Below, piece after piece: positions 25,520 to 51,641 of a stretch of 64,000 nt of DNA; the stretch's first letter is position 1; every line of letters begins with the position of its first letter. The DNA is from Hypholoma sublateritium FD-334 SS-4. Its lineage: Eukaryota > Basidiomycota > Agaricomycetes > Agaricales > Strophariaceae. The stretch lies in the NCBI GenBank assembly GCA_000827495.1, contig KN817532.1:191388-255387 (forward strand). Reading direction: 5' to 3'. The notes below the pieces were generated by a model, which was given only the letters and a program-made list of their open reading frames with translations, ran no database searches and was not told where the DNA came from. Position numbers and translations under genes: made by a program.

Positions 25520-25753
25520 TCAATCGTTTTGGGTGGCGTAGCGAAATAGGGACTCTTCAGGGGATACCATGGCCTTCGCCTGGGGGCTTTTCACCGCGGG
25601 CTGCAATATCAGCAATACGACGACAAAAACGGAATCCAATCCGAGTCAATATTATAAGCTGGATAAACGAGTTGTCCTACTTACCATTGCCGTAACACCG
25701 TGCCCAAGGATAAATAACATCGAACACATAGCAGCGACGGAGAAGAGATTCAT
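25520..25753 (-). CDS. Short secreted peptide, FRY family member 1
   Basis: Exons 25753-25685 and 25600-25520 join over an 84-bp intron (donor GTAAGT, acceptor TTGCAG, phase 0); 49 aa. Exon 1 is a textbook signal peptide (MNLFSVAAMCSMLFILGHG, cleavage near TA-M-PA). Exon 2 encodes 26 residues with SPEESLFRY seven residues from the natural family tail, ending ATQND. A TATA-like ATAAAAAGG lies at 25837-25845, about 85 bp before the ATG. Four other loci in the window share this architecture and the S-x(4,5)-[LM]-F-[RKQ]-Y pattern. No cysteine is in the mature part. Function unknown: a secreted signal, effector or modified peptide precursor are all possible. Confidence 0.7.
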
Positions 25754-26658
25754 TGAGATTCCTGTATAAGGGTTATTTCAGAGCGGTCGTTTGCTTGGAC
25801 AGCAGATAGATTTAGAGGCGTCGCACGTCCGCTCACCCTTTTTATGCGAGAATGGGCCGGTGAGAATCCGTATTTTTTTAAACGCGACGTAGCTAGTATG
25901 ACCCATATACTACGATGTGACTTATCCGTGGTAAACCCTACCAGAATACCATGCCAAGTCTTGAAGTATCGGGTGGATATCAAGTATTCGTGATTTGCAA
26001 TCAAGAGAAGCCTTCCATCTCTTGACACGAGCTCGTGGAGACATGTAACTTTCAATTGTAAAACGCCCGAGCTGAGTGGGCTATGTAATCCTAATTTCCT
26101 ATTTAATCTGACATATTTCACTTACACACAGATACCGGCATGACTGGAGCTCGGCCAGAATTAAGCCCCGCCTCATGTGCATTCCCATGCGTGTGCTCTA
26201 CCTGCTATACATGCCATGAATGATCTAATATATCTATTATAATCAAATCAGCTTGATCCAGAGCTCTTGGTGCGTCTGAAATGACCGACGCCGCTGCCAC
26301 CAGGGGATACAGATTTATGATGGAAATAGTATTCGCATTCTGGAACTGGTCTACGTTGGGTCTACGAGGTGTCCAATCTGATACTCTTTAAGTTAATGAC
26401 ACCGAGAGATTTCATTGTTCCCGGTTTAACTCCGCTTAGACGAGATTCTATCTTCACTACAAATGGCTCACGGCATGTGTGGCTTCAGTCAGCAACTTGA
26501 AGCACAGTTTCTACAAGATATCCTCGGCGCCTGCCACGGATTCTAAACTGTTCAGCTGACTGAAGCAGCTGATAGGTGCCCTGGAGCCACGGTTTATTGT
26601 AATAAAATACTCACCGTCACGGTCTCACTATTACGGCTTTGTGTATCCAAGCAAAATT
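25754..26658. other. Intergenic region between peptide genes
   Basis: AT-rich. One open frame of 123 codons on the minus strand (26121-25750) has an ATG but no signal peptide, domain or family resemblance, and overlaps the promoter and start of the peptide gene at 25753; I leave it uncalled. Confidence 0.35.
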
Positions 26659-26868
26659 TCACGAGTCAGATGACGAATATCTAAACATCTGTTCCTCTGC
26701 TGACGAAGATAGCTTCGGCGAGCCACTGGATAGCTGTAGCATTGTATGAGTAGAGATAACCCCTTTGCCCTGTGAACTTATTGACATGCTGTTCACTCAC
26801 TGTGGGTACCGCGGCGTGGCGAAGGCAGAAATAAGCGAGCGCACGACGGCAACAAAGAGGGTGTTCAT
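26659..26868 (-). CDS. Short secreted peptide, FRY family member 2
   Basis: Exons 26868-26801 and 26725-26659 join over a 75-bp intron with a perfect GTGAGT donor; 44 aa. Exon 1 encodes MNTLFVAVVRSLISAFA, a signal peptide with cleavage near Ala17. Exon 2 encodes GSPKLSSSAEEQMFRY followed by SSSDS and stop. The intron is phase 2, unlike the phase-0 introns of the other four members, and the acceptor chosen is the second of two close AGs (26726-26727) because only it keeps the family tail in frame. A strong TATA box (TATATAAAAA, 26899-26908) lies about 31 bp before the ATG, so the leader would be very short. Confidence 0.62.
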
Positions 26869-27553
26869 GGCGAAAGCTTCGAAGATCCTGAGCCAATGTT
26901 TTTATATAAATTAAATACGAGTGCGTGAGCTTGTAAATTCTCTATATACATGTGTGGAACACAGGCCGAGTCGAGCTGTGCAACAAAAAGTTGCACAATG
27001 GAGTGATTTCAGAGCCTGCAGCTGGAGCTCCACTGGTAGCTACACCTTCACGACTATTATTGCTATCGTTTCTATTAGGAAAACGACAGCGAAATGGCGA
27101 CTGCCGATTTGTCAATATGTCTTTGCTTTTATTATCTCTGGCATTTGGGGGGTCTCATGCACCTCGCCTGAGGGGAATACATCACTCAAAGCCTCAGTCG
27201 TTCTGCCACTTGATAATTTTGACAGAAATAATGTACCTCAGGTGACTGATACAATACCCTGATTTTCAAGCTTTTCTATCAGCTCAAAATCGTATACGCT
27301 AGCATTCGCTTGTGTTCAACTCGTGCTTTTGTGCGGCTGTTCGGGAGGAACGCCAATCTCGGGCTAGTATTTGATTCAGAAATTTGATTTGATAACAAGC
27401 GGCTCATATTGCTACATGATTTGGTCTAGAAATACAAAGTTCTATGCAATCTTCGCGTATATTAGCTCAAAATCAAATAATTCACCATCGCAATGATAAT
27501 TTAATAGGCAGGACTTACCATTTTGCGTGTCTTGTAGTATGTGAGATATCCTC

Positions 27554-27754
27554 CTAGTGTTTGTATTTAAATAACAAGTCTTCAGTCACTGAGATTCTGT
27601 TCCCTGTTGCCAGTGGCTACAATAAATAATAGGTAGTCTATTGTTCAGCTGAATTATCATCGGTAAGTGCTTGCGGCACACGCACCAGCGCCACTATAGT
27701 CTTTGACAGAGAAGATAGGAATGCACAAAGAACAACGACGACGTAGAACTTCAT
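27554..27754 (-). CDS. Short secreted peptide, FRY family member 3
   Basis: Exons 27754-27686 and 27616-27554 join over a 69-bp intron (donor GTGCGT, acceptor TTGTAG, phase 0); 43 aa. Exon 1 encodes MKFYVVVVLCAFLSSLSKT and IVAL, a signal peptide. The spliced tail begins LPLATGNR, like the LPLASPTE start of the member at 46858, and ends SVTEDLLFKYKH, with Lys in place of Arg in the F-[RKQ]-Y triplet. Unspliced, the frame would end after 38 codons without the motif. A TATA box (CTATAAAAT) lies at 27841-27849, 87 bp before the ATG. The shortest and most divergent member. Confidence 0.62.
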
Positions 27755-29544
27755 GTTTGGAGGTTTGGAAGTCGACAAGTTTCAATGTGTGTATGAAAGT
27801 AGGAGAAATTGAGTTGCTGCACAGTAGCAGTCAGAGTATCATTTTATAGTGCACATTCAGTGGATGCTCAATTGATAATCGCTACCAAAATACACCAACT
27901 ATGGCCGAAGCAATGAAGCTTTGAAGACTCAGTGCGACTGCTGCGCTCCCATCTTAGTCGGAATCACTTGGGAATCACAGCATTTTTAATTATGACTCAT
28001 CCGTAGATCCTCTTTTTATTCTTGAGGACAAGCGCAAGGCCATTAGCGAGCTTAAGCGAGGAATTGCGATATCGCAGTGACTTGAGCTATGCTGTTGGCA
28101 TTCATTCATCCAAGTATTCCAGTTGGCATTAACCGGATTCAAGTCAGAGTTGATCACAATGAATTGTCGTTGCATCGTTGTGACTCGTGAGACGTACTTG
28201 CACCGCCAATTTTTGTGGGGACTTTGTGTTTATGTTCGTCGAAATCCCATAGGCTATAGTTTGAAATGCAGGACTCGAAAGAAGGTTTTTTGCAAGTCTT
28301 TTGCAACTTTTTTTCCCTGTAGGGGAGTCCGGACGCCGGAGGCCCGCTTGAAAATTAGTCGCGCCGACCACGTGATCGTGCTCTGCGTAAGCTGAACGCG
28401 CTCGTCAAATCCAAGTTCGAAGTTCGAACCTTCATACCACCACAGCAAGCTCTGGCTCCGCATGCGGTGTGCTGCTTCCTCAGATCTCTTCCTCGCCTAC
28501 ATTTATTCCGTATATCCGTTTCACCCCTCGCGTTCGCAACGCGAGTTGCTATCAGCTCTACTCAGGCTCTACTAACGCGAACCGGATAACTCTGCTGTGG
28601 TCCGCTGCTCAGACCTGCTCTGCCTGGTGCTCGAAATTAGTCTTCCTATGAGTCTATTTCCCTCCCGACGCTCCCTCAACCATTCCAGCCCGCCTGCGAC
28701 ACATGTTCTGACTCTCATGTCTATCCACCACCGTTCACCATTTCATATGCTGCAATCATGGGCTGCGAGGACCCCGCGCATCCGGATGCAGATCTCGTAT
28801 CCCAGTACCTATCGCAATGTCCCTTGAAAACCGCTAAGCTGCGGGTTTGTAACACGCACACTCGTATGCGGTATGCTACCTCCTTTCGTACCAATTGACC
28901 ACTTCAGCACGGCAACTGTCACAAACGAACGAACGAACCGCAGGGTTGATCTCGGCGCTCGACTCGCTCGCGCATGTCTCAATTTCCACTGGTATATAAA
29001 AGGAAATGCCTCATGGATATGGTACGCCGCCCACCCCTGTCCAATGTCGCCACCAACAGCAGATGTCTCTGTGTGCCCATGATTGTCAAAAAGACGTAGC
29101 CGACTCTTTTTCGACCCAACTAATAAACTTAAACTAGCGTCAACCTGCCCTCCCACGACAACACCTGTCTTGGTCAATCCGAGTCAGTTTTCCTAAACAA
29201 TAGCCGCAACGATTGTATCATACTCAGCGGTCACTCTTCAGCGCCAGCAATCCCACTAATATGTCAGACTTTTCTGTATTTTTAGATGGTCGCTTTTCAC
29301 ATTGTCAGGAGTTTGTGAATGGGCTAGCTTCGTCTGGGGATGCCGTCTGATTTTCAGGGCCCAACCTGGAACTCCGGTGGCAATTGGTACCCGCCATCAT
29401 CCAGCTGCTCTCTTGTCATTGTCAAGGACGACATAAATGATATCCACCGCCGACGAAGTTGACTAATAAAGCCGTCTTTTTCAAGCGAATGGTACTTAAG
29501 TTCAAATCTCGTGTGATTTTATCTTTCAGCGGTATACCACAATC
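27755..29544. other. Intergenic region
   Basis: About 1.8 kb. No gene, RNA or repeat that I can support; open frames stay below 125 codons and have no domain. The minus-strand frame 28809-29177 is the longest and is not convincing. The right end holds the promoter of the seven-TM gene. Confidence 0.4.
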
Positions 29545-30813
29545 ATGTCGGACCCTCAATTCCCCGTCAACGTTGAACAAGCCTTGATTGATTCATCGGT
29601 CGAGACTACAATTTTGCAGGCATTTCTCACCGGTCAGTAGTGGCATTCCGCTGGAAAATTTACTGTGAATGGAAGCACTGAACATGAAATAAATTCCTCG
29701 CGTAGGGCTGTATACGCTGTTATTTGTTCAAGCAATCGGTGAGAAGTTAACATATGCACTACCCGAATAGAATTGAGTGCTAACATCATGTTTTTGAAAG
29801 TGCCTTTGGTTCGAGAAGGAAGGTACAAGATATATGCCCTGGCATTGACGCTCCTCTATGCCATGATTGTGATCAACCTAGCTTCAGCATGGGATATTCT
29901 GCGATCTGTTGTTGTCTTGAGCGACGCAACAAGGGATACGATGGCTTTACAGATTCTCGGAGGCCCCCTCAAAGTCCCTAGACTGGCAAATGCCAGCGGC
30001 TCTATTGCCATCCTTATTGCGGACTCGATACTCGTCAGCCGATTACTTGATAGAAAGACTTCGTCTTCGCTGATTGAGTATGGCAGGCGTGGCGATGCTA
30101 TGTATATTGGCAGCGAAACATTTTTGTCCTTGGAGGATTCTCTCTTTTGATACTGGGAGAAGTCGGTAAGGTCTCCCTATCGCTATGGTACAATTGTCGG
30201 AAGTATTGATATAAATATTGTCAGCGCTCATCCCAACCTACTTGGTCCTCAACGCCACCTTGGGGCCACACCAGATCTCCATCATCTGCCTCTATTTCCT
30301 GATATCTGTGGGAATTACCACCATCGCGACGTCCATGATTGCTTACAAGATTATCACCCTATCAAGGCGCAGAAAGGAACATATCAGAAGATACGAATAT
30401 ACTGCACAAATCATCGTGGAGTCTGGACTGCTGTACTCTGTTACCCTCTTCATCACGGCAGTGCTGCTGGCTGTTCAAGGCTCGAGCTTGGATGATTTGA
30501 ACGTGGTTCAGGCTGCGTCGTATTTTGGGGCGATCTTGACTCCCGTAACGGTACGAGACGCGTGTTCTCTGTTCAACACATACTGACATAAGGACCGTGA
30601 TCGCAGGGAATTGCGCCAACGCTCACGTCTTATCGAATTCTATCAACGACCGCCGCAGACGATGAACAAAACTCACACTTGGCAGTTCAATCACGCATTC
30701 CCTTTGCCCGGGGCGCACAAACTACGAACGGACACGAGCTCAGTACGATTAAAGCAGCTGATGACAAACGTACGCCTTCGCCGGAGCCCCGAGCGGGGGG
30801 ATACCATGTTTAA
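29545..30813 (+). CDS. Seven-TM protein, tandem paralog A
   Basis: Exons 29545-29632, 29706-29738, 29801-30033, 30087-30165, 30225-30550 and 30607-30813; 321 aa. The protein has an outside N terminus of about 28 residues (DPQFPVNVEQALIDSSVE), then about seven hydrophobic helices, a short loop LVLNATLGPHQIS, the conserved junction GIAPTL, and a charged cytoplasmic tail of about 60 residues. Exon lengths 88, 33, 79 and 326 nt are identical to those of the copy at 33700, and exon 3 differs by one codon. Large families of such receptor-like proteins occur in agaricomycetes; ligand and partner are unknown. The paralogs flank the UstYa gene. Confidence 0.82.
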
Positions 30814-31644
30814 AATTGCACATGTCGAGAAATATCTTCGGGAAAAGAATTATGCTCCTCGTTCCAATAATCCCTTACTTCATGTATTTTTCATAGTTCT
30901 AGTGAATGCTATGCGGACGGCGTCCTTGTCATCATCTTTCAATAAGTGTACAGACCCCTACTTGTATGAACACCCTACATTTACTAGAGCCTATTGAGTT
31001 GAGTCTGGAATCACTACAGACTCTGAGCCTCAAGATAGAGTTGAAGAATTTTATGCCGTCAAGCCACCGGACAATTCGTGAAACTGATCCCTGTCCAAAT
31101 TCTATCTCGTTATGCGAAGCTATAAATAACATACACGTCTGATTTCCTCGGTAACGGTGGATTCTTCGGCAAGATTAGATCGACTGGAAAATAAAAGCAC
31201 GCGTATCTACTACACTACTGTTATGTGCGCGTCAGCTAGTCCTTGAAAACAGATGTTGAGGCTCAAGCATAATTACTGCAGCTTGGGCCTCGTTTGAGCC
31301 TGACAAAGAAGAGCGTAGCGTCGCAGTGAACATAATGCATATAGGACATGCAATGACCCTGATCTCGGCGGACGTAAGTCAACCGCAACGTCATCAATCT
31401 TCTGACATTTATCCTAACTTCAAGTGTTATGCGACCAACATCTAGAGCGCTACGTACTCAAACGCTCCTCCGAAACTGATAGACGGCTTCTTGGGGCTCC
31501 ACTGTTCGAAAATTCCGTCGGATGATCTGCGGCTCAGGGTAAATACAGTCTTTTTTGTACCATTGTCGATGCAGGGGTTTGTAGAGCTGTCAGTCATTCA
31601 TCTCGTATTAAAACATTGCCAGTGCGGCAGACGGGGGAATCTAT
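30814..31644. other. Intergenic region
   Basis: Separates the convergent seven-TM gene A and UstYa gene. No supportable feature. Confidence 0.4.
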
Positions 31645-32609
31645 TTATATCTGTTTGCCGTGCACAGGGTTCCCTTCCACCCATATAGTTCCGTCGTATG
31701 TCTCCAGAGCGCGCGACGCCGCCCATTCGTGAATTTTATCGTAGTTCAAACATGTGTGCGTAACGTCCCAGGTGATCATGGCTTGCTTTGATCCCTTATC
31801 CCATTGCCAGACTCCCGGAGTCGTATCGGGCATGCACATGTGCGTCTGTCTAAGCATGTCAATGCAGTGTTCCGAATGTTCGTGAACTGTCTTATTTCGG
31901 AGATCGTACTCCACTCCATAGTAGTCGGGATACAGGTTTTTTCTCAGGTAGTTCTGGTAGAAGCGATTAGTACATGTGGCTCCAAGAAGGTGACAAGGTT
32001 TCCCAGAAACGCACTAAGCAATGGAGATTGTGAAATACTGAGAGCGTCGTGATATACCCGGTTGGATCTTCAGCAATCCGCGACGTTTTATTTGGGAGTA
32101 GGTGCAGCTCGTTGTTCGTTACTCTGAATACCGCTCCTGGAATGGATAATTAGAAGACAAATTTGAGCTCAAGGACGAGCCCATATGTACCCTGGTATAG
32201 AGCGTCCCATAAAGCGTCTATTCCAGGTGTAGGAGGGCCTTCATACGGTGACAAATGAGTTGGGATACTGTTATGAAAAACGCGTGTCTCGTGAAAAATA
32301 TGCGTATCGGGTATGAGAGCTTGCAAATTATGCCATGTCGTAAGTTTGGTACTACTGAAGCTTGTAGGCCTTGCGCTTACGATGAATGAGCCCCGAGGTA
32401 GAAGCGGGCTTGAAGAAAAATGTCAAGCCGACGATGATCACTAGGAACTCAAAGACAGCAATGATTTTCCATAAGCTCCAAGAAGATCTAAGGCCTAGAT
32501 GGTATCCTTGGTGAGCGAAATCATGGTCGGAAGATGCCTTCAGAGGTAAGGGATCATATTGTGAAGAACGCGATCCTGTAAAGCGGAATAATCGAGAGAC
32601 GGATTCCAT
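31645..32609 (-). CDS. UstYa-family (DUF3328) oxidase-like protein
   Basis: Exons 32609-32381, 32319-32191, 32136-32015 and 31953-31645; 262 aa. A cytoplasmic N terminus of about 45 residues is followed by one membrane helix (about 47-66), then the lumenal UstYa domain. Both hallmark HxxHC motifs are present: HNLHC at 155-159 within SVFHNLHCL, and HSEHC at 186-190. The flanking YPDYYG, DTTPGVW and WDVTHTCLNYDKI are also standard. UstYa proteins catalyse oxidative cyclisation or halogenation of ribosomal peptides and other metabolites in fungal secretory compartments (ustiloxin, asperipin, cyclochlorotine pathways). The start is the only Met before the membrane segment. Nearest genes are seven-TM copies on both sides and, 3.9 kb away, the peptide gene at 27754. 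Confidence 0.92.
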
Positions 32610-33699
32610 GGCAGGACAACAGTTGCGACACCAAGATTAACAGCGAGAATTTATAAGGGGAATCTCTGAGTCAAAAGAAGCACAGATGCATAATACGTTC
32701 CGATCAAGATACAGCATTGAAAGTTCGAGGATGCGGGTATGCAGATATGTGTTTTAAGCAGCGCATCCTTTGGAATCAAATTAGTGCTCAAAATAATCCC
32801 TGTTGCACGCCGAATGGCCCAGATAAAGAGGGTCGCATCAGATCCCAGCGGCAGCCTGTGTACCGTACAAGTACAAGTACTCCACACGAGACAGAAATAG
32901 GTATGGTGTTGCTGGGAACAGCTCTGCATTACTGGTTCAATATGTGGCACACCCGTACATATTATCCCTTGCATTTGATAGCTATATAACATCAAAGGTC
33001 TGCGTCGAGTCAGTATATACGTTCCACATCAATGATGTCAATGAATGTGCTGTGCGCAGTGCTTTCCCGAGTCAGCGTTGGAAAGCGCGAGCCACCAGCC
33101 TGATCTTAACAACGCCTGTGCCTTCAGTACTTGTTTCCAAATATGATACGATTCAACTGCAAGTAGAAGGTGCTTTAGTCGATAGTCGAATATAAAAAAC
33201 TTTTATGAAATCAAAAGGATGGGAAGTATTAGTATTGCACTATGAAGTAGCAGTAACCCATTTTGTGGGTGACAACTTTATGAGCAAGCGATAATCCTGA
33301 CAAAATGACTAAAAGTACATGGTACAAATCCCATATTTTATTTACCGAATAAGAAGCCTCACTTGGCCCCAGAGCCTGACGGTTCCTTATGATAATGTAT
33401 CGACCTCTTTATTTCTATTTTGTGGAAAGCAAGGAAATTACCCATGGCCGCGGATATTGGGCGGCACCCTTAGATCGTACGGTCCCAGGTCAAACAAATG
33501 GAGAAATATCTTTCCCAATAAATGCCATCACAGGCTGTCGTGGAAGCAGAGTGCCGTTACAGATTGCTTGACGCGACCACAATGCAGCTGCTTCTGTGTC
33601 ATGATGTGAATAGCGTGGCTGTGGCTGCGTAGAAGTTGATTTAAAAGTACACGCGCATGGGACGCTCTTCTTACCTTCTCAGCTCTCACCAGGTGCACT
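32610..33699. other. Intergenic region
   Basis: About 1.1 kb, divergent promoter region of the UstYa gene (minus) and seven-TM gene B (plus). A minus-strand frame of 114 codons (32995-32651) is hydrophobic in places but lacks a family match; it could be a gene remnant. Confidence 0.4.
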
Positions 33700-34978
33700 A
33701 TGTCAGACTTGCCGTTCCCTCTTGAAGTTATTCAGGTGGAAATCGACGCATTGGTAGAGTCGACGATCTTACAGGCGTTCGTTACGGGTACGTGACTCAG
33801 TATTGCCATGGTTCGTGAATTATATACTTGAATCTTTTCCAGGGCTTTACACGTTACTGTTTTTCCAGGCAATCGGTCAGAGTCCTGTTAAATAAATCTG
33901 TACTCATCCTCAATTCCGTTCTTTCTAGTACCACTAATCCGTCAAAAGAAACCATTTTTCGTGGTCGTGCTCAGCGCTCTTTACATCGCCATCATCCTGA
34001 ACTTGGCTGCAACATGGCAGATTCTGCGCTCTGTAGTCGTTACGAATAACGCGACAAGGGTCACCATGATTTTGGAATATCTCGAAGGTCCGATTGTCAT
34101 TCCCAGGATGGCCAACGCGACGGGATCTATAGCCATTCTTCTTGCGGACAGTTTGTTGGTGAGTAGAGGCTTGATAATATTCCGCGATCCCAACCCCACT
34201 GAGCGGTATACTTTGTTTAAAGGTTTGGAGATGTTACGTTCTTTGGCATAAGAACAAGTGGATATTGGCCATGTTCTCTGTGTTCATTCTTGGGGAATTC
34301 AGTAAGTTGATTATCAGTTGTGGTGTATAACATGTTACGACGACATTTGTCTATTTAGCTGTGCTCCCGATCTACTTGACCCTCAACACTACCCTTGGGC
34401 CCCATAAAATCTCAATCATTATTGTTTACTTCCTCATTTCTGCTGGAGTCACTACCCTCGCAACGAGCTTGATCATATACCGCATTTTCGACGTTTCAAG
34501 GCGAAGCAGCAATGAAATGAACTCATATCAATACACAATCGAGATCTTGGTCGAATCTGGTGTCATGTATACTGCCACAATTGTTGTGACAGCCATCCTC
34601 CTTGCCATCCAGGGTTCCAGCTTTGATGATTTGAAGGTTGTCCAGGCCGCCTCGTACTTCGGGGCGCTATTAACTCCCATGACCGTCAGTCGGTTTGGTT
34701 CTACTTTCCTCCGGTCGTCGCGCTAACTGCATCATCTGCAGGGAATCGCACCAACACTTATCACGGCGAGAATTGTGTCTGGAAGCGCCAGACCTGACGT
34801 AGAGTGGTCGAAACCATTCTCTGGTATGGCATTCAAGACGCAGGATATGTCGCGACTCGGATATGCTGGGGAGTCTCACACGGAAGTCGACAATATCGCC
34901 AGCAAGCGTATCGGCCTATCTATTGGCGGCATAGGGGAAAGCAAGACGGTTTTGAACGAAGAAAAGAGTAGCGTGTAG
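33700..34978 (+). CDS. Seven-TM protein, tandem paralog B
   Basis: Exons 33700-33787, 33843-33875, 33929-34158, 34223-34301, 34359-34684 and 34742-34978; 330 aa. Same layout as gene A: short outside N terminus, about seven helices, GLYTLLFFQAI, LVWRCYVLWHKNKW, LNTTLGPHKIS, GIAPTL and a longer Ser/Gly-rich cytoplasmic tail of about 70 residues. Sequence identity to gene A is obvious over the helices and low in the tail, so the tail may differ in partner. Intron positions and phases are the same in both copies (1, 1, 0, 1, 0). Role unknown; receptor-like topology is inference. Confidence 0.83.
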
Positions 34979-35522
34979 TGTTTGCACTACATCTTTGAAG
35001 TTACACTGGTTTACTTGTTTAACTATGTATGACATATGTTACAGAACACCGCAGTCCGAAATTCTGTGTAATACTATTACTGCCTAATAATTGTCGTGAC
35101 TTTGCTCACTGATGATAGAAACTTTGAGTTTGGATCTCAAAAGATATTCATGTACAGCACCAAACAGCATTGACACCGACCATCCTAAAGTAGCCTAAAG
35201 CACATTCTTCGGAGCCCAGTCCAGTCCCGATGACTCTTATGGCGTTGCTGTGTACGAAATCAGAATTAGCAGGTCAACGTGACGGGCATTCGAGCCATCG
35301 TTGAAGTAGCCATCATGGTAATCAAATCTCGATTAACTTGTATCTCGCACTGCAGTGGCCATCATGATGCATGAAACTGGGTAAATATTAGGATAATCAA
35401 TATATTACTATATGTACTTAAAGTTTTGGGTGAGATACTTGTCGATACGGTTTGTTTCAAGGCCAAGGAGACAATGCGTAAGTACTACCCGCCCATCACT
35501 GCCTGCCCCGGCCCGGGATAAC
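34979..35522. other. Intergenic region, convergent gene ends
   Basis: Holds the 3-prime ends of seven-TM gene B and the DUF6697 gene. An open frame (35779-35408, minus) overlaps the DUF6697 last exon in another frame and could contribute an alternative last exon, but this is not needed. Confidence 0.4.
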
Positions 35523-41398: not shown

Positions 41399-42685
41399 CT
41401 ACTCCTTATGTGAAGCTGCGGATTTCAGGGCGCTTATAAAATCAGTTGAGTTGGCCCGCCAACCATTAAGCCCAGCGTTAAAGTCGACCATTTGTGTCGC
41501 TCCAATGGGTGAGGTTGTGGCGGAAACGTCATCGACAAGAATCACATCGTACCCTTTATAATACGAGCTAAAAATAGACTTCCGTAAATTTCGTTGAACG
41601 CGAGCAACGAAAGACAAAGTAGACTGACTCTAGAAGGGTTCCCCACACGCATTGGTCAATGTTTACGCCTCCGAAGAAAAGAGTCGTCATGCTGTTGTCC
41701 TGAAGCCAGGTTTGCATTGGGGTTCCCGGGCCCCACATCCCGGAGAGACGGTCTACAGTCGACAGCCGTGAGCAACAAAACACAATACTGACTATGGACG
41801 TTCGCCTACTTTTGTTGAAGTAAAAATCGGTTCCTTTTGCGACGCCGGAGACCTGCTCCTCAAAGAGTGCGCCCCACCTGAGATATAGAATCACGTAAGA
41901 AAGTGGGTAAGTTTGATGCAGTATAATGACGTACGGCTGAGCGTTCCAGGTTCCTCTGACCAATTTCCTTCCAACGGCGATCGTGACGTTGGGGCCATGG
42001 GTTGTTGATGTGGCAGGAATTGAATTATCTGAGGCAGGTACTACTATAGACCCCATGTCGCTGCCGAACGACGACTGGGAGCTAGAGGTGCTGGTAAAAC
42101 CGTTGATGAAGGCGGGCGGCATGTTGATCACTATTTAGATAATTAGTGAGCTCCTTCAGATAAGCAGAAGAGTGATAGTACCCACAATCAAACTCAGTCA
42201 ATCCCCAGTTTGTCCAGACGACGGGCATCTTAGCAGCTCTGAACGCATTGATAAGGTTGACGGTCGCGGCTAAGTGGTGCATTTCCGTAAAAAAAAACGA
42301 GCAAGTTACCACAACAATGCAGATTTTACTCACGAACAATAGCACGACCCTTTGGGTCACCGTTGAGACTTTCGTGTAAGAAGAAATTTTGCATGTCGAT
42401 GATGACCAGCGCAGTTTTGTTCGGCTGAATGATAATCGGCCCGTTCTCTGGCATAGGGAGCGTTATCGCCCCAGAACTGTCGCCACGAGTGAGCTGGAAT
42501 CGAGACGACCATAGTCAACATATGACCTGATAAAAGATGAAAGGCCAACGTACATCCCACCCGGAGCTGAGTTTCTCCCAGAAATTGAAAGCGTTGCCAA
42601 AGATTGTAGGGTCGGTCGAAATCCCGTTGACAGACAATGCCCCGGGAATGAAGCAAGCCAAGGAGAGCGCAAGGGATGACTTCAT
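41399..42685 (-). CDS. Secreted isochorismatase-fold cysteine hydrolase
   Basis: Exons 42685-42554, 42493-42334, 42269-42186, 42130-41935, 41877-41810, 41752-41629 and 41567-41399; 310 aa. A signal peptide covers about residues 1-18 (MKSSLALSLACFIPGALS). The isochorismatase fold shows ALVIIDMQNFF with the catalytic Asp, VVWTNWG, DFYFNKNRLSGMW with the catalytic Lys, and TLFFGGVNIDQCVWGTLLD with the nucleophile Cys. Family members hydrolyse amides or vinyl ethers; a secreted form is common in agaricomycetes and its substrate is unknown. The Asp, Lys and Cys triad is intact. The final junction uses donor GA-GTCAGT because the other nearby donor gives an immediate stop. Confidence 0.88.
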
Positions 42686-44567
42686 CTCACTACAAATTTC
42701 GATTAGAATTTGGAAGCAACGCAAGACATCTTGACCACCGAAACACTGTAACTTTTATAGTACATGTGCTGCGGACCGACCAAGGCATCATATGATAGAT
42801 ATAATGAACTATTAGAGCATAAATCACCTTTCTTTCTCATAAATTTGCCGAGAGCATCGATTTCGAATGTTCAATCTGCGTCGCTTTAGCTGAATCGAGA
42901 CCATCCATGAGGAGATCGTGGGAGGATATACTGCAAATATTTCTCCAGCGAGGCGATGAGCAGAGTGTGGGCTCCATGGAAGGAATCGAAGCGATAAGGC
43001 TAAGTTATTTCAGTCGAGATGCCCAGATAACAGCTACAGTTTGTTACAAGAATCAGACCAAGAAGATCCCACAACGTCGTCGCGGACCGTGAAAGCCATT
43101 CATTCAGTCGGAGCACCATCGCTAGATATCCTGCAGATGACTGAGGATGCGAAAGATATCGGAGAAGGAGCCGAGCAATATATTCTGATTTATAGAGGGA
43201 AGTTCGAAGCTGGGGAAACAAGAAAATCAGTATCCGTCAGATAGGCAGCAAACAGGACATACTGTAGTATACCAGTAGGATATTCGCCGTCAACGAGTTG
43301 CCAACAAGGCCGGCAAACGTGAAGTTCTTGAAGAGCCAGAAGAAACAGCATGGCCAATACTCAAAAGTTTACGTTTAAGCACAAGTAAGTCCAGGATTCT
43401 GGCATCAGGTGGCATCGCAGTGACAGAGTGGAGCAGAGACTATTCGAGCGCGATCACGAGCGGGGGTCCGTGCGCTGATGGACTGAAGCTTGAGGCTGCG
43501 CACAATTTAATCACAAACCAACTTACTCTCTTCGTGCTTGTGCAAAGCTGCTCTGGGACCCAAACTTCAGAAGCTTCCAATCCTATCACTCTATTTCGTC
43601 TCATCTGAAAGTGTGAAACTGTTTATTGCTCTGCCAACTTACAACTAAGCATCTCCGCTAAGACAGAACTTCGCTTCGCAATTACAATAGCAACCTCTGA
43701 AGAAACGGCTCGCGGACTCGACACACTAGTGAACCAATTTCCGTGCCCTTTGTCTCATTTGAAAGTAACGGGTCTGTTGTTGAATAGGCATATGAGCAAT
43801 GTTCGGCATTACGTGCAAGTCTACTCATTTGAATCGAAGGGCTATTGTCTGTTCCGCCATCTGACTAGCTGCTCATTACCTTCGGCCCATTTCCGGATCG
43901 CGGCCTTGTACTATACTCGCATCATGTCTTCACGTCCTCCGATTTGTGACCCCCCGCAAAATTCTGGCATTATGAATCATACTGCGCCTCTTCCCGCTGT
44001 CCTCGTCAACCTGTCTTCTCCCCGGAGTACACTTGAGTATGATGACTGCTGCTACTTCTCGGTCTGGATCTAGACAGTGGATCTACAAGAGAAAACCCAT
44101 GGCAGCATCAACAAAGATGCTGGCAGTCTCGACGGAGGACCGAACCTAGCCCGGTGGCCGCCCTCTATATGAGCAATGCTGAATAGCGACGGATGCAAAC
44201 CCTTCCAGGTCGGCTTCCGCCCTAAACCGAGCCGCCGGCAAATATCTCAGTCTTGTTGTCTCGTGACGCATGATTCGGACCCATTCCAATCAAGCACGAT
44301 GCTTTGTGTTGGGCCACAGTGACACTAAGGCCACACCAACAATGGACTTCGCATGTCATTGGACTTACGATGAGTGAAGGGGTGGCTCACTCACTCTCCG
44401 AATGTGGGGGACGCCACCCGGGATCTTTAGTATGCATTGTTCATTCGAATCTCGAGGGGGCGGAGGGTACGGAACCCTGAGGGCTGCGTGCTGGACAAAG
44501 CTGGGACCGCTTGCTGCCCGCTTTCAACTTTCCCCTTGAACATTATCATACTCTTCTCTAACATAAC
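42686..44567. other. Intergenic region
   Basis: About 1.9 kb without a gene I can support. The longest open frame (43729-44073, plus) is 114 codons with no domain or signal. The right end holds the promoter of the kinase gene. Confidence 0.4.
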
Positions 44568-46609
44568 ATGCCATCTTCCCCACCTTCGTCGTTCGACGCC
44601 AGCGGCACCCGAGGTAGTCTGCCCTCTGAGCAACAAACCATGCGCATCCTGGGCGCCATGGATCGTTTCATTGCGAGGATGCGCGCCGCGAGCAACAATT
44701 CCCAGTCATCTGGTAGCTCGGTGCTTAGCGAATTTGGACAAGACCAAGGTTCCTCGGACTGCGAATACATGGAGGACTCGGAAGAAGAGGAGCTAACCGA
44801 CGACGACCGTGGTAACGACGGCGATGACGAGGACGAGGACTCCTGCGGGGACACTGATCAGCTCAGCACGGATTTGGAAGAGGACGCATCAGAAGAGGAT
44901 TTCGAAGCCAGCGACACAGATGACCAGCTCATGGATACAGACGAAGACGAGAAAGGCCCGGAGAGCGGATGGCACGAAAGTGGATCGGAATATAATGATA
45001 TTAGATTCACAGCTACAGAGCGTGCTCTTGCATCTTCCTTTCATGGTCAGCTTGTTCCGTCCCTCGAAGACCGCGCAGACGGCGTTCCGACTGCGGATGA
45101 TTTTGGCCCGCCTCGTCTTTTTCGCCAAGCTGTGCTCGAGGAAGTCCAAGGCGAGGGGAGCGGGTACTCTAATCAACCATCCCTGAAGGTCATCCGTGAC
45201 AGACTTATAGGTCTGGGCGGCGAATATAGCGCTGCGTGTCTCGCATTTAAGGTGGCCCACACCTTTCAAGTTCCAGCAGAGCACAACCGTTATATATCGG
45301 TCAGGGCCGTAGTCATCGAGGACCAATCTTACCCTCAAGGCATTCGGGTGCTGAAAAGCTCTTCAAATGAGCGTTCGGTTGGGTGTGAGATTAGCGCATA
45401 CTTGCGCATATCACAGGAACGTGCGAAACTTGATAAACTGGGGTACGCATTCCTGATGGAATGCGAAGCAACATATGTTGCCGACGATCGATGGTGTTTG
45501 TTGATGGTATGTTTTTCTTCTGTATATTACCAGTCTTTTTAAGAAGTCCTCTGTTCTAGCCTCTCGCAATGTGCGACTTACGGGATTTTCTCCCGCGCCT
45601 CGAGGGCAAGGGTGAAGCCCGCGCACTATTGGCTCAAATTGTACGTTAGACGATTCGTTGTCAACTCTCGGCGGCAACACGATTCTTACATATTTGCAGG
45701 TGCTGGCATTGGCCACTATCCACGCTATCGGAATGACTCATGGCGATATCAAGCCTGAAAACGTTATGGTGGACCGAAGCGGGAACATCAAACTGATGGA
45801 CTTTGGGTCAAGCTACGTCCGGCCTACTGCGGCCCCTCTGGAGCGCAGCACTGTACACCCCTCCGTGGTATTCACGCTTGCGTATGCGGCGCCTGAACGC
45901 TACGCAGGGACAAGTCCCGCAACAGACTACTGGTCCTTGGGGTGTTTGTTCTATGAGTTGGCAATGCGTACCGAGTCCGAAAGACCCAAAGCTCTTGGAG
46001 ACAACGTAAGAATCTTATGCTGCTCAGTCGTTTATTTATGCTTACCACCTCTTCTTAAACAGGTTCTTTTTGAATTGATAGACCTCAGACGTTGGGTTGA
46101 AGGGTATCGTAATGGCGATAATCTGAGGTCGCATCTTCCACAAGACGGCGAGGTCCTCGACTCGGATTCGTTGTCTCTGCTTTCCGGCGTAGGTATACTT
46201 GTCGCCGTTGAGCTGAGATGCTTATTGTGAATTACAGCTCCTGTGTCCGAACCCTGGCTGTCGTTTTACCATCGATGATATGCTGAATCACGCGTATTTC
46301 GCGAATATAAACCGGAGGTATGTCTATCTCCACGTCTACCTTTTTGCACAGCCCCTAATTGTACTTCCACGATAGAGACCGGACAATGTCAGAGTTCCAG
46401 CGCCTCCGTCAAGGTGTGTAATCTATTTTCTATGCAAAAATGGATGATGCTTGAACTGACCATGCGACATCATCATAGATTTGTATAAAGGGGACGTAAA
46501 CAGTTTCAGTGACCGGCAGGCAAAGTATCTGGACACCGCGGCTCAGAATGTGGTAGCACGGCAGAAAATACTGATACAAACTGACAGGTATAACCTTTGG
46601 CTGAGATAA
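44568..46609 (+). CDS. Protein kinase with long acidic N-terminal region
   Basis: Exons 44568-45506, 45560-45640, 45700-46005, 46063-46188, 46238-46317, 46376-46413 and 46479-46609; 566 aa. Residues 1-45 are Ser-rich, 60-140 are extremely acidic (SEEEELTDDD, DEDEKGPE), and the kinase domain spans about 215-500. Kinase motifs: candidate ATP-anchoring Lys in RVLKSS, helix-C Glu in GCEISAYL, THGDIKPENVM (HGD replacing HRD but catalytic Asp and Lys kept), MDFGSS, and AAPERYAG. Thus probably active. The glycine loop is not obvious. Substrate unknown; I do not recognise a named family. The last exon ends with a coiled, basic tail. Confidence 0.85.
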
Positions 46610-46857
46610 TATTGTGCTGTACGCAAGCTGCACGTAGTTTACAAACATTTGATATTTTAATTTCCATGATGCTGCTCCGAGACACCCCATCCATACCTTG
46701 TTTTCCCATGTACTTTAATTTTCGAAAGAAACCGAGGGATACGAAGGGCTATCTCCTCTCTCTTCTATGTACTTATATGACAATGCTGATGCATTGCGGT
46801 GAGCTTCGCATGCTTATACAAATACTATGCCACACCTACGGGATGTACGCGGGACTT

Positions 46858-47075
46858 CTACTTTGTAGTGTCCGGGTCAGCGAACGGGTAACGAAACATA
46901 GCGGCGTCCGGAGATCCGCCCTGTATGAATAGTACGTATGTTAACCCGGATATTGAATGAGATACGGAGATACCGACCTTTCCCTCAGTGGGGCTTGCCA
47001 GTGGCAGGGACTGGGCAGAAGAGACCCATATGGCCACATAAATCAAAGAAAGGATCAAGAAATCTTCGTCTGCAT
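46858..47075 (-). pseudogene. Short secreted peptide, FRY family member 4 (frameshifted)
   Basis: The ATG at 47075 opens MQTKIS in frame but reaches a stop after the sixth codon. One base short of that point, the next frame (from 47058) continues a signal peptide (LILSLIYVAIWVSSAQS) and LPLASPTEGK, then a 57-bp intron (46977-46921, phase 0), then exon 2 46920-46858 with GGSPDAAMFRY and the tail PFADPDTTK. The intron is a multiple of three without stops, so retention would also stay open. There is no in-frame ATG for the second frame before an upstream stop. A TATA box (TTATAAAGG) is at 47137-47145. So either a 1-bp loss in a T run inactivated the gene, or the base is missing from the assembly. 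Confidence 0.6.
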
Positions 47076-48529
47076 TGCTGGGGTGAGTGTATTTAGTTTA
47101 TGATATTCCACTTACTACTAGGATACAACTTCGCTCCTTTATAACGTTTTGAGACGAGCTCATTTACGGACCTTTACATAATTTTACCGTAGCGATGTCA
47201 GTCAGCTCAGCGATCATCTGTCGATGTTCGCCGCTCGAGGCTTGTTTTCCTGTCTTTCACAAGCTGGGTCGAAGGCAAAGGTGAATTTGGTTTCCCTCCA
47301 GATACCAAACCTTATCCAATTCCTTGCTATCGTTTCCTTATCATACTGGAGTTCAATGGAGACGCCAACACCTCCGGCATCTTCGCTTTTACCATAAATC
47401 TGCTAATCAATCTGGTGGGAAGCACGTATTTATATCTCAGGATTCTGATATGCTGGGCGCTGAGTGTTTACTATGCCTTGGATGAGATTGGGCTCCACGC
47501 TTCAGCTATGTTAATTATAAGAGGTGCCAAACCGATCAACATGGGACTTCTAAGAAAACGTTCCAACTTTCGACTTGCTTTCGACATCGATAGAGGATTC
47601 AAGGAGGTAGTTGTCCAAATTTGCACTATAATTGGGGATCTGAAAGACGAAGTGAGAAGATCACCACCCATGAGATCTATGTAGATTGAGTTTAATTCAA
47701 CCACGTTATTTTATTTTTCGATCCGAATATGCCAATTATCGAATCAGAGCAAAGACAGAGAAACATTGGGTGAGAGCAGGTTTAGGTCAGTTGACTAATA
47801 CCATGCTTGTTTGGTAGGCAAATTATTCGCCTCGAGGTCTCTCAATCCCGTCCTATCCGCAGAAGTTCTTTCCCTGTCAGATTATGCAAATATATTCAGA
47901 TCTCTCGAACACCGCCAGCACGCTTCGGGGATCTCGCTTGCGCCCTCCCAGAATATCCCCGTTCTGCAAATTTCATTGCTGCATATAGTTTTCAATGAGT
48001 GACGGTCAAAGCTCAGTGTGATAGCTTCGATATGTGGCTTGAGGTGGCTTGCCGTACACAATTCGCCTTGCCTGCCTCCATTAGTCTTTCCGCCGAATCC
48101 GGGCAGAGGATCTACAAAGTCACATAAAGGCAAACAAACAACCTACGGGATAGCGTACTAGGGGTGTACTCGTGCTACGGGGACGATACCGCTCGTAAAT
48201 ATGCTACGGACACTCCCTAGAAGGCTCGAGAAAAAGCGCGACGACGCATGAGAGGACTCGGATGCGCTTCGTTAGGCGTCGTACAAGCGACGTGGCCTCG
48301 CAGCTCTTAGCAGATGGATAGTGGCTTGGTGGCCGGCGGGGTCGGCTCGCGTCAAGTTGCCACAGCTATGCCACCAGGAGGCCACACCCAAGGAATGGTC
48401 CAAGGGCCATTCGACGCAGTATAAAACTAGTCGCGCATTTAGGATGTGTCCCCATCGCCTTTTCCACTACCTTTTGCATCGCTCGTCTGCCACCCCGTCT
48501 AGTTCTAAGTAAATTCGTCACGATACACC
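47076..48529. other. Intergenic region
   Basis: About 1.45 kb. Frames of up to 90 codons exist on both strands (47415-47684 plus, 47704-47471 minus) but overlap one another and show no family features. A TATA box (TATAAAAC) at 48420-48427 belongs to the acidic-protein gene at 48530. Confidence 0.4.
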
Positions 48530-49018
48530 ATGTCCTCCAAACAATCTGCAGTAATCGACATCGATCAGACCCTAACCAGTGGCCCTGCTGCCGAGCGGCA
48601 TGAAATATGGACGCGTCAGGAGGTGGACAGCTTCATCTCGCCAAAGTACGAGGTATCGCGCGAGGCGGAGGACGCGCTCCTCGACAGGTCCCCGTCTCCC
48701 AACAGCTACTACACGCCTGATGAATTCGAGGGCGAGGACGGCGATTATTCTGAGTCCTCACAGTACGACTCAGATGGTGAGAGCTCGGTGGAGCTGAATG
48801 ATGATAAAGAGGAGGAAGAAGAAGAGGACGTCAACGAGAACAAAGCCGCAATACAGTTGCACCAATTGCTCGACCTCCAATGGTTTATCGACGTGAATGT
48901 TGATAAGGAAACCAGTGACTCAGAGGAAGAGGTCTACTATGACGCCGATGATCAGAGTTCCGATGTCGGTGACCGCGATCCGGAGAGTGACGAACAGGAG
49001 GAGCGGTCAGAGGCTTGA
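48530..49018 (+). CDS. Small acidic protein, intronless
   Basis: One exon, 162 aa. TATA box about 103 bp upstream of the ATG. The protein is very acidic: a Ser/Asp/Glu run around residues 70-105 (EEEEEEDVNENK) and another at 125-160. A short hydrophobic stretch, LHQLLDLQWFIDVNV, lies between the two. No signal peptide or known domain. Acid-rich composition is like the N-terminal region of the kinase gene at 44568, 2 kb to the left, but similarity of composition does not prove homology. Possibly a histone- or RNA-protein-binding factor; this is a guess. Confidence 0.6.
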   Translation: MSSKQSAVIDIDQTLTSGPAAERHEIWTRQEVDSFISPKYEVSREAEDALLDRSPSPNSYYTPDEFEGEDGDYSESSQYDSDGESSVELNDDKEEEEEEDVNENKAAIQLHQLLDLQWFIDVNVDKETSDSEEEVYYDADDQSSDVGDRDPESDEQEERSEA

Positions 49019-49159
49019 AACAGCGGAGCGAAATCTGCTGGAAGCCGCAAAGAATTCGTTCTACTTACCATGATAATTATCCCCGATGCAGTTAAATAGT
49101 GCACATATAGTGTATGATACAGTACGGTCTCTATACTCAGTATATATTTATAACGCACG

Positions 49160-50592
49160 TCAAAACTCTACGTCTTTGTCCTTCTTTCGTGATTTATTCT
49201 TATTTTCCCCCTCGTCGTCCTCCTCGTCGAAGAAGTTTTCTGATCCCTCTGGACTGTCGTCAGAGTGTTTCGTACGGGCTGCTGCTTTGTCCGGGCCGTC
49301 CCCCGGCGCGGCGTCGCTTGCATTATCCTCACGCGCGTGGAATTCCGCAGGGATATCATCTTCATCGTCGTCCTCGTAATCCCTTGCAATGCGCGCTATC
49401 TCAGATCGCAGCGCCTTGCGTTCGCTAATCAGCTCCAGCCAGCGCTCGATGTCAAGCCCGCGCGTCTTGTAAAGCGCTTCGCGCCGTGCAGTGATGCTGC
49501 GTGCGAGCACGGAGCTGTATGACACCTCGCGCCCTTGGTATAGGAACCAAAGGTATCCCACGACGACGGTAGACAGCCCGGAGAGATATGTGATAGGTTC
49601 CATGACATCCCTAACTTACAATGAGTAAATAAAGTATACCTGGTAATCAAGAGCGACGCACCAGCCGTAGTCCCAGAATGTCAGGCGCGCGACAGCGCCC
49701 CAGTATACGACGAGCATTCCAAAGCCGCCGAGGGCCATGTGGCGCGCGCCGCGCCGTGCCTCTGCGTCGCAGCGCTCCTTGAGGCCTTCCATATCGTGCA
49801 GGAGGCTCCCCACGAGCCGCAGGCGCCGCTGCATGAAGCGCGTACGGTCGGCGAACGTCGGAACTGCGACCGTCAGCAGCGTCTCCTTCGTACCCGCTAC
49901 CTCACCGTCCACAGCCTCCTCTCGTACGTGCGGCTGTCCACGTCCGTGTCGGTGGTTGTGTTCGTGCGTTATAGCTATCGTAAACTCAGCCGAGCGCGCG
50001 GCGGCGCGGATGAAGTCGCCGAGGTCGGTAGAGTCAGACCACTGCACGGCCTTCCCATCCGCAGGTGCACTGCGGAAAGAGATATGTGATGCAGCGTGTC
50101 CAAGTTCGGCGTGAATGAGTCTGCCAATGTGTGAAAGGGGTTGCGAGGGGTGTAAAAGGAAGACCATCGGTGGAGGTGGGTCGGCGCTGGTGCCATTAAG
50201 GTGGCTTTGTTCATTGTTGGATGGGTATGGGAGGCTCCCGAGGGGTAATATTAGTTTGAAGAGGTGCGAAGACGTCGGCGAGAGCTTTCCTAGTCCCGGA
50301 CAGGGGGGTAAATACGATTGGCGAAAGCCTGAGATTTCAGAAGATGCCCACCTCGTCCTTCCGCAACACCGGCCACATCATCCCACGAGGCTTTTAGTTT
50401 GCTCTTCTCTGGGGTATCGTCTTCGTTCCATCTGGCCTTCGGCGATGCCTCCGCTATGAAGTGTGCGTGGTTTACATCTAGATTCTTGTCGTGTGTGGTG
50501 AACCAGCGCGCCCCACAAAGCGTCGACGCTCGAATTCTTGGAGTCAATCCATGGGTATTGCATATTTGGAAAGCACTTCTGAGTGTAAACAT
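49160..50592 (-). CDS. MCU: Mitochondrial calcium uniporter pore protein (MCU)
   Basis: Exons 50592-50352, 50289-49662 and 49610-49160; 439 aa. The N terminus is Arg/Ser-rich and lacks acidic residues for 25 residues (MFTLRSAFQICNTHG start), as in mitochondrial presequences. Then GKLSPTSSHLFKLILPLG, a beta-grasp-like domain, a coiled coil (about residues 225-255), TM1 (GGFGMLVVYWGAVARLTFW), the selectivity-filter sequence WDVMEP at 290-295 with the conserved Glu at 294, and TM2 (SGLSTVVVGYLWFLY). The tail is a coiled, acidic and basic matrix region. MCU forms the Ca2+ channel of the inner mitochondrial membrane. The exon 2-3 junction lies in the Trp codon of the filter. Confidence 0.93.
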
Positions 50593-51415
50593 ACCCTACG
50601 GATCCTTGGACTGTATAGGGAGGAGAAACGTGGTGACTTCAAGGTGTATCGGACGCCACATGGGAGCAAATGTCAAAGCGCCTAAAAGTAACGACGTCAT
50701 GTCCTTTTATGATCCCCACGGACATAAGTACATCACGTGAATTCGGTCTACTACACTGTACTGAGCATCTTGAATTTGTCCAGAATTGCGAGGAAAATTG
50801 AATTGCTCATGTGAAATTTCACGGATGAAGCACAGATCTGAAAAGCGCTGAAAAGCCGTATCCACTGGATTTTCAGAAAGCCAAGGGAACAAAACTTCGA
50901 GGAAATCGGCGAATGCTATTTATAGAACTCATACTTAGTACCAAGGTGAAATAATAGATACATCCAGCACACGAAAAGGATAAGTGATCTGTTGAGTAGC
51001 TTATCCCAAGACAATTGATTTATCAGACTCCGAGCTCGGAGGTGTTTAAAATTTCAGGAGATAAGTATGCTATCGTTCTGAAGCGACAGGAGGGAGTCAG
51101 TATATTGTGTGAATCTCTAGTCTAAAGTTGGAGGAAACAACGATATATATTAGGTTCACTATAGATCTGCTGAGAATTCATATCGGAGATTTCCTGCGAC
51201 TTTCTAGCTCTCTGGATCCAGGAAAAGAACTACGAGCGGCGAACATTGACGTGGATAGATGATCATTCAAAATTCGGCGCCAATGGCTACTCTAGTAGTC
51301 TCGGATATAGATGCTAGATGCTACTACAAACTAGTAGGAATAGTTTTATGGTTCCCTCTCAGGGTATTTAATAGGGCTTCCTACTCCAACCTTTGAGTAT
51401 ACAGACACCCCCACA
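50593..51415. other. Intergenic region
   Basis: Divergent region between MCU (minus) and peptide gene 5 (plus). No further gene. A weak TATA-like TATTTAATAG lies at 51365-51374. Confidence 0.4.
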
Positions 51416-51641
51416 ATGCAGCCAAACTTTTCTTTCTATTTGTCTCTTATTTTCGTAGTTGCAGGGTTCAACGCCATTGCCCAGCCTATTACGGCACCCA
51501 CGGCGGGTAAGGTCAGTAGCTCCGTATCTCGTTAAATGGCCAATTCGAGGCTTATAGTTACATATGTAGCGAGGGTCACCGGATTCGGAAATGTTTCAGT
51601 ACGCTGGTCAACCGGTCCCCACTGCATATAACATCATCTAG
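51416..51641 (+). CDS. Short secreted peptide, FRY family member 5
   Basis: Exons 51416-51511 and 51570-51641 join over a 58-bp phase-0 intron (GTCAGT donor, TGTAG acceptor); 55 aa. Exon 1: signal peptide (MQPNFSFYLSLIFVVAGFNA, cleavage near IAQ) then ITAPTAGK. Exon 2: RGSPDSEMFQY then AGQPVPTAYNII. The exon junction GK-RGSPD lines up with GK-GGSPD of the copy at 46858, residue for residue. Gln replaces Arg in the triplet. The KR at the junction is a possible Kex2 site, which would release a 22-residue peptide starting GSPD. The only intact copy on the plus strand. Confidence 0.68.

What the first reader, a model, noticed from the sequence alone, without database searches (positions are those of the whole stretch)
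25520..51641. A family of five short secreted-peptide genes with a shared F-[RKQ]-Y tail
Five separate loci each encode, after removing one intron, a signal peptide plus a 20-30 residue tail with the pattern S-x(4,5)-[LM]-F-[RKQ]-Y: SPEESLFRY (25.6 kb), SAEEQMFRY (26.7 kb), SVTEDLLFKY (27.6 kb), SPDAAMFRY (46.9 kb), SPDSEMFQY (51.5 kb). In four of them the intron is phase 0 at the same place, between the signal-peptide exon and the motif exon; four have a clear TATA box at 30-90 bp and the fifth a weak TATA-like run. The similarity is in the translated, spliced product and crosses the exon junction, which is hard to explain by chance. I know of no description of this family; that is a statement about my knowledge, not a search result.
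Basis: partly seen in the sequence, partly recalled or inferred. Interest (0 to 1): 0.88.

Follow-up and report, generated by a model that had tools for sequence, protein, structure and literature searches.

The report
Mini-peptide genes beside UstYa cyclase
A mushroom genome carries five related genes for short, likely secreted peptides ending in a Phe-x-Tyr motif (one of the five has a broken first exon), in the same stretch as a gene for a UstYa-type enzyme that would likely cross-link that motif into a ring, which may explain what the many unexplained UstYa genes of mushrooms act on.

Summary
The five loci are there. Four read through one intron into 43-55 aa peptides with a hydrophobic N-terminus and the tail S-x(4,5)-[LM]-F-[RKQ]-Y. 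The fifth (46.9 kb) keeps the tail exon, but its first exon stops after six codons. The window has four such genes; 200 shuffles of it have none. The genome matches Hypholoma sublateritium FD-334 SS-4, where one of the five is a 'hypothetical protein'. No relative was found in another species.

The genome has about 30 UstYa genes. At six of 17 other UstYa regions that I read, small signal-peptide genes with other tails lie near UstYa. One paralogous pair of them sits within about 1 kb of two sister UstYa genes (83% identical), so peptide gene and enzyme stayed together through a duplication. A plain count of candidates is not significant.

Best reading: single-core RiPP precursors of a dikaritin-like pathway without Kex2-separated repeats, the F-x-Y likely joined by a Tyr-O/Phe-Cβ ether as in asperipin-2a. 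Secretion, splicing, modification and release are untested.

The parts
25520..25753 (-). g1, 49 aa: exon 1 25753..25685, intron 25684..25601, exon 2 25600..25520; tail SPEESLFRY
   Evidence: public model P0001 shares the intron
26659..26868 (-). g2, 44 aa: exon 1 26868..26801, intron 26800..26726 (phase 2), exon 2 26725..26659; tail SAEEQMFRY; weakest signal sequence
27554..27754 (-). g3, 43 aa: exon 1 27754..27686, intron 27685..27617, exon 2 27616..27554; tail SVTEDLLFKY
46858..47075 (-). g4: intact tail exon 46920..46858 (SPDAAMFRY); first exon 47075..46978 stops after six codons (likely pseudogene, or an error in the sequence)
51416..51641 (+). g5, 55 aa: exon 1 51416..51511, intron 51512..51569, exon 2 51570..51641; tail KR-G-SPDSEMFQY
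31645..32609 (-). UstYa-family gene, 262 aa, exons 32609..32381, 32319..32191, 32136..32015, 31953..31645; N-terminal hydrophobic anchor, HNLHC and HSEHC
   Evidence: model; PF11807 E 7.2e-44, residues 48-240
19848..21870 (-). cytochrome P450 gene with FGAG / RRICPG segments on neighbouring exons (approximate ends); possible tailoring enzyme, by position only
   Evidence: PF00067 E 4e-9 and 7e-6; frames

Best explanation
The five loci are paralogous genes (four readable, one with a broken first exon) for 43-55 aa peptides with a signal-like N-terminus, lying in one stretch with an intact UstYa-family gene, and they are predicted to be single-core RiPP precursors whose F-x-Y tail the UstYa enzyme would cross-link in the secretory pathway. 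Shown: the open frames and splice signals, the shared tail, the UstYa gene with both HxxHC motifs, and small signal-peptide genes near UstYa, with tails that differ from locus to locus, at six of 17 other UstYa regions read in this genome. Inferred: exon 1 sends the peptide to the ER; the membrane-anchored, copper-dependent UstYa oxidase joins Tyr-O to the beta-carbon of the Phe two residues before it (a 14-membered ring by my atom count; the Tyr-O/Phe-Cβ bond is published for asperipin-2a), with [RKQ] as the ring's variable middle residue; proteases then free the core. Only g5 has a Kex2-type KR before the core, so release from the other copies would need another protease. The P450 may decorate the product. 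Several precursors would share one enzyme and give a small set of related products, perhaps for defence or competition.
For: Four spliced genes with the tail against 0 in 200 shuffles. Tail pairs g1/g2, g1/g5, g4/g5: 0 of 2000 residue shuffles reach the score; g1/g3 15 and g2/g3 13 of 2000. UstYa gene E 7.2e-44 with both HxxHC. Other UstYa regions: C56, two genes sharing IF..AEPNR (1 of 2000 shuffles reaches the tail score), C136, two sharing LG[VL]CLSxxxCLxLT (0 of 2000). C65 25.8 kb and C31 340.7 kb: paralogous peptide genes (0 of 2000) within about 1 kb of sister UstYa genes (tree support 1.000; 83% over 170 aa), divergent in one place and in tandem in the other. Single genes: C31 240.9 kb (..KRGLALCF) and C27 48.4 kb (..APHWF). 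F and Y are the only residues invariant in all five tails, and UstY chemistry makes a Tyr-O/Phe-Cβ ether in asperipin-2a (PMC12186524 passage).
Against: No transcript or mass-spectrum evidence. No relative in another species and no F[RKQ]Y gene found near any other UstYa gene, so in the window the pairing rests on distance alone; g4 and g5 lie 14.5 and 18.8 kb from UstYa with ordinary genes between. Plain count of TATA-bearing candidates: 8 in 160.0 kb of UstYa regions against 1 in 75.7 kb of other loci, about 0.16 by a hand binomial, not significant; paralogy was noticed after looking. Eleven of 17 other UstYa regions gave nothing I accept, C81 and C135 among them despite wide flanks. Three of the eight candidates have no support. 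No Kex2 site before the core in g1-g4. No tyrosinase, methyltransferase, S41 peptidase or transporter match among 50 of 82 ORFs scanned. g4 is broken and g2 has a poor signal sequence.
Confidence: 0.6

Rival explanations
1. Unmodified short secreted peptides (signals, antimicrobials or host/competitor effectors); the UstYa gene is a chance neighbour.
For: About 30 UstYa genes in 46 Mb make a chance neighbour within some kilobases possible; the count of candidates near UstYa is not significant against control loci; no Kex2 site in four of the five.
Against: Paralogous small genes at two further UstYa clusters and the C65/C31 pair that duplicated with its UstYa gene.
Confidence: 0.27
2. Genes that are no longer or not yet functional: fast-turnover open frames kept by chance, with no peptide made.
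For: g4 is broken, g2 is weak, no homologue found elsewhere.
Against: Tail conserved while the rest diverges; g1, g3 and g5 intact with promoter-like runs; g1 was called as a gene independently.
Confidence: 0.1
3. Sex pheromone precursors of a basidiomycete B mating-type locus.
For: Several short peptide genes clustered in an agaric (general knowledge, recalled).
Against: No Cys near any C-terminus, so no CaaX box; no pheromone receptor among the Pfam matches of 50 of 82 ORFs of at least 120 aa.
Confidence: 0.02

Closest known systems
Asperipin-2a (AprA/AprY), a dikaritin
   Same: Core with Phe and Tyr; one UstYa-type enzyme; Tyr-O to beta-carbon ether links (passages of PMC6514808, and PMC12186524).
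   Different: Ascomycete; multicore, Kex2-separated precursor (PMC9769878 passages, for dikaritins in general). Here one core per gene, several genes, no dibasic site in four of five; product unknown.
Ustiloxins and phomopsins (dikaritins)
   Same: Signal-peptide precursor, UstYa gene nearby, Tyr in the presumed core.
   Different: No repeats; no tyrosinase, methyltransferase or S41 peptidase match among the ORFs scanned (50 of 82).
KEX2-processed repeat proteins (KEPs) of Agaricomycetes
   Same: Short secreted peptides of mushrooms; only some near DUF3328 genes (103 of 1680 basidiomycete KEPs, PMC7329392 passage).
   Different: KEPs are defined by repeats between Kex2 sites; these have one core and no repeat.
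Lichen UstY clusters without a found precursor (Parmeliaceae clans R1/R2)
   Same: UstYa genes with signal-peptide genes that lack repeats; the authors name a single core peptide as one possibility (PMC12048977 passages).
   Different: Those are ascomycetes and the precursor was not identified; here candidates are named, multicopy and share a core motif.

Membership tests
UstYa (DUF3328, PF11807), gene at 31645-32609 | Family profile match over the domain | tested here: met
   E 7.2e-44, profile positions 17-219 of 220
UstYa (DUF3328, PF11807), gene at 31645-32609 | Two HxxHC motifs | tested here: met
   HNLHC and HSEHC in the model
Dikaritin | Precursor with N-terminal signal peptide | tested here: met
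   Hydrophobicity and cleavage-residue rules only, no SignalP: g1, g2, g3, g5 pass, g2 weakly; g4 does not read
Dikaritin | Repeated core peptides separated by Kex2 sites | tested here: not met
   One core per gene; KR before the core only in g5
Dikaritin | UstYa/DUF3328 gene near the precursor | tested here: met
   3.9 kb from g3
Dikaritin | Tyrosinase, methyltransferase, S41 peptidase or transporter in the cluster (not in all members, PMC12048977) | tested here: inconclusive
   None matched among 50 of 82 ORFs of at least 120 aa; exons shorter than that were mostly not scanned
Dikaritin | Side-chain cross-link at Tyr | not testable with these tools
   Needs mass spectra; Tyr is present in all five tails
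KEP | Repeats flanked by Kex2 sites | tested here: not met
   No repeat in any product
Basidiomycete pheromone precursor | C-terminal CaaX box (recalled) | tested here: not met
   Products end ATQND, SSSDS, KYKH, YNII; g4 tail ends PDTTK

The most novel reading that the evidence does not exclude
Mushrooms make a separate class of UstYa peptides. Each UstYa gene or cluster is paired with its own tiny split genes, in which one exon carries the secretion address and the next a single, freely varying core (F-x-Y, IF..AEPNR, GLCLS..C, RLCP, PHWF), and the pairs duplicate as units. These would be the missing substrates of basidiomycete UstYa enzymes, invisible to repeat-based mining.
Probability: 0.4. 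Interest if true: 0.88.

Novelty: new variant of a known kind. Interest (0 to 1): 0.7.

Why it matters
UstYa genes are common in mushrooms (about 30 here; 16 in Pleurotus ostreatus, six of them developmentally expressed, PMC8893723 passage). Yet repeat-based mining found DUF3328 neighbours for only 103 of 1680 basidiomycete precursor candidates, and its author wondered whether cyclisation hardly occurs in that phylum (PMC7329392 passage). Single-core split mini-genes would resolve this, give named candidate substrates for a copper oxidase family, and make 'what do mushroom UstYa enzymes modify?' testable gene by gene. F-[RKQ]-Y, with fixed F and Y and a variable middle residue, is also a simple substrate to try.

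Tried and rejected
Genome-wide DNA pattern for the tail: no excess over the reversed control (76 against 68). Searches of the own genome with g1 and g5: only themselves. Protein searches: three-row and five-row alignments gave only the own gene; the UstYa protein gave one fragment of 151 aa from an ENA set (76% identity over 19%, 1 of 68 candidates at E 1e-5); by eye it shares 38 of 41 residues of exon 3, so a close relative of this UstYa gene exists elsewhere, but its contig could not be reached. F[RKQ]Y genes near other UstYa genes: none. A C56 frame with AMVKY looked like the motif but is another splice reading of the AEPNR gene; dropped. Candidates at C31 228.4 kb, C63 184.9 kb and C136 19.1 kb passed the filter but have no paralogue or plausible core; not counted. 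The C136 pair and the C31 340.7-kb gene did not pass that strict filter; they came from paralogy and looser rules. Many apparent paralogous signal exons are UstYa membrane anchors and were dropped. One UstYa match (C65 33.3 kb) was not read. Control loci are places that the tail pattern brought in, not random ones. Solved structure for UstYa: one weak match, E 0.04. The whole output was cut by length. Borosin and cycloamanide readings were set aside from recall only.
Full report
What is there. The window (C15 of a 46.1-Mb, 281-contig genome) holds five loci with the tail S-x(4,5)-[LM]-F-[RKQ]-Y. Spliced products: g1 49 aa, g2 44 aa, g3 43 aa, g5 55 aa; g4 has a clean tail exon, but its ATG frame stops after six codons. 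g1, g3, g5 and the tail of g4 sit behind a phase-0 intron of 57-84 nt; g2 reads only with a phase-2 junction. TATA-like runs precede all five ATGs, weak in g1. g4 and g5 also share the first part of their intron sequence, so they are close relatives. The protein search names the organism: g1 matches HYPSUDRAFT_421771 of Hypholoma sublateritium FD-334 SS-4 at 100% over 90% of the query. That model has the same intron but another end after FRY, at a junction where I see no GT-AG in this sequence; I do not rely on its end.

Chance. With one rule set (signal-like exon, GTNNG donor, intron of up to about 110 nt, short tail with the motif) the window has four genes; 200 dinucleotide shuffles have none, and 159,981 bases of other UstYa regions have none. 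Tail pairs g1/g2, g1/g5 and g4/g5 score above all 2000 residue shuffles each; g1/g3 and g2/g3 are reached by 15 and 13 of 2000. The motif alone is not rare in the genome (76 hits, 68 in the reversed control). Clustering and gene structure make the case.

Context. At 31645-32609 (-) lies a four-exon gene for a 262-aa UstYa-family protein with an N-terminal hydrophobic anchor, HNLHC and HSEHC, PF11807 E 7.2e-44. A P450 lies at about 21.87-19.85 kb (-). Of the 82 ORFs of at least 120 aa I scanned 50 against Pfam; the other matches above cut-off are ordinary: FAD oxidoreductase, helicase, Brix, ORC, DUF6697, protein kinase, mitochondrial calcium uniporter, Urm1. Several of these lie between UstYa and g4/g5, which are 14.5 and 18.8 kb from it; the compact part of the cluster is g1-g3, UstYa and perhaps the P450.

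Is the UstYa neighbour meaningful? The genome has 39 exon-level UstYa matches, about 30 genes. I read 17 other UstYa regions: six with wider flanks (13.8-23 kb in all) and eleven with about 1.5 kb on each side. Six of the 17 hold small signal-peptide split genes that I accept (four of the six wide, two of the eleven narrow): C56 (two, sharing IF..AEPNR), C136 (two, sharing LG[VL]CLSxxxCLxLT), C65 25.8 kb and C31 340.7 kb (one each, paralogous, ending RLCP), C31 240.9 kb (KRGLALCF) and C27 48.4 kb (APHWF). Their splice sites are my predictions; the C65 model has three exons and the C31 340.7-kb model a 120-nt intron. The C65/C31 case is the strongest: the UstYa genes beside them are sisters (support 1.000; 83% identical over 170 aa), the peptides are paralogous (0 of 2000 shuffles reach the score), and both peptide genes lie within about 1 kb of UstYa, divergent in one and in tandem in the other. 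The C56 tails are reached by 1 and the C136 tails by 0 of 2000 shuffles.

Results against. A plain count of TATA-bearing candidates is not significant: 8 in 160.0 kb against 1 in 75.7 kb of other loci, about 0.16 by a hand binomial; those control loci were brought in by the tail pattern and are not a random sample. The paralogy was found after looking. Eleven of 17 regions gave nothing I accept, C81 and C135 included although their flanks are wide. Searches of the own genome with g1 and g5 found only themselves, so the F-x-Y family is confined to this locus as far as these searches see. No relative turned up in other species.

How it most likely works. Exon 1 addresses the peptide to the ER (inferred). 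[quoted passage not shown] The two residues invariant in all five tails are F and Y, two places apart; such an ether would close a 14-membered ring (my atom count; a 14-membered Tyr-O-Leu-Cβ ring is described for the plant peptide selanine A, whose macrocycle is said to resemble asperipin-2a, PMC11253845 passages). [RKQ] would be the ring's middle residue. Release: g5 has KR before its core; g1-g4 have no such site, so another protease is needed. That is the weakest link. Tailoring by the P450 is a guess from position.

Known and new. It works like a dikaritin but fails a defining feature, repeated cores between Kex2 sites. KEP mining requires those repeats (PMC7329392 passages) and found DUF3328 neighbours for 103 of 1680 basidiomycete candidates, leaving the many mushroom UstYa genes unexplained. 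A 2025 lichen study found UstY clusters without repeats and named a single core peptide as a possibility (PMC12048977 passages). I saw passages of eight papers (PMC6339444, PMC9769878, PMC7329392, PMC8893723, PMC12048977, PMC12186524, PMC6514808, PMC11253845) and only listings of the rest. The listings of ten paper searches showed no report of such precursors in Basidiomycota; the library lacks most subscription journals, and a 2025 paper on DUF3328 chemistry cited was not held.

Verdict. A real small gene family beside a UstYa gene, in a genome where some other UstYa genes also have small split peptide genes beside them. Single-core RiPP precursors is the best reading (0.6); proof needs reads and mass spectra.

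Noticed in passing
G000 C136 5466 (+) and 16460 (+) (loci L074, L075): Two paralogous two-exon signal-peptide genes around three UstYa genes, tails sharing LG[VL]CLSxxxCLxLT.
   Followed up: partly
G000 C56 139599 (-) and 138035 (-) (locus L064): Two two-exon signal-peptide genes 3.5-5 kb from two UstYa genes, tails sharing IF and AEPNR.
   Followed up: partly
G000 C65 25815 (-) (L030) and C31 340688 (-) (L028): Paralogous small signal-peptide genes ending RLCP, each within about 1 kb of one of two sister UstYa genes.
   Followed up: partly
G000 C31 240936 (-) (L008) and C27 48377 (+) (L072): Single small signal-peptide genes near UstYa genes, ending KRGLALCF and APHWF; the first has a dibasic site right before a six-residue end.
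   Followed up: partly
G000 C81 37.6-39.4 kb, C135 72.5-76.4 kb, C136 11.8-13.2 kb: The same two UstYa subfamilies occur side by side at three contigs, as if a two-enzyme unit had been copied (tree).
   Followed up: no
window 30215-30586 (+) and 34331-34726 (+): Two paralogous hydrophobic frames (53% identical over 38 aa) on either side of the UstYa gene; neither has a Pfam match.
   Followed up: no
public protein P0001 (HYPSUDRAFT_421771): The public model of g1 ends LPHLRLRP after FRY, at a junction with no GT-AG in this sequence; unexplained.
   Followed up: partly
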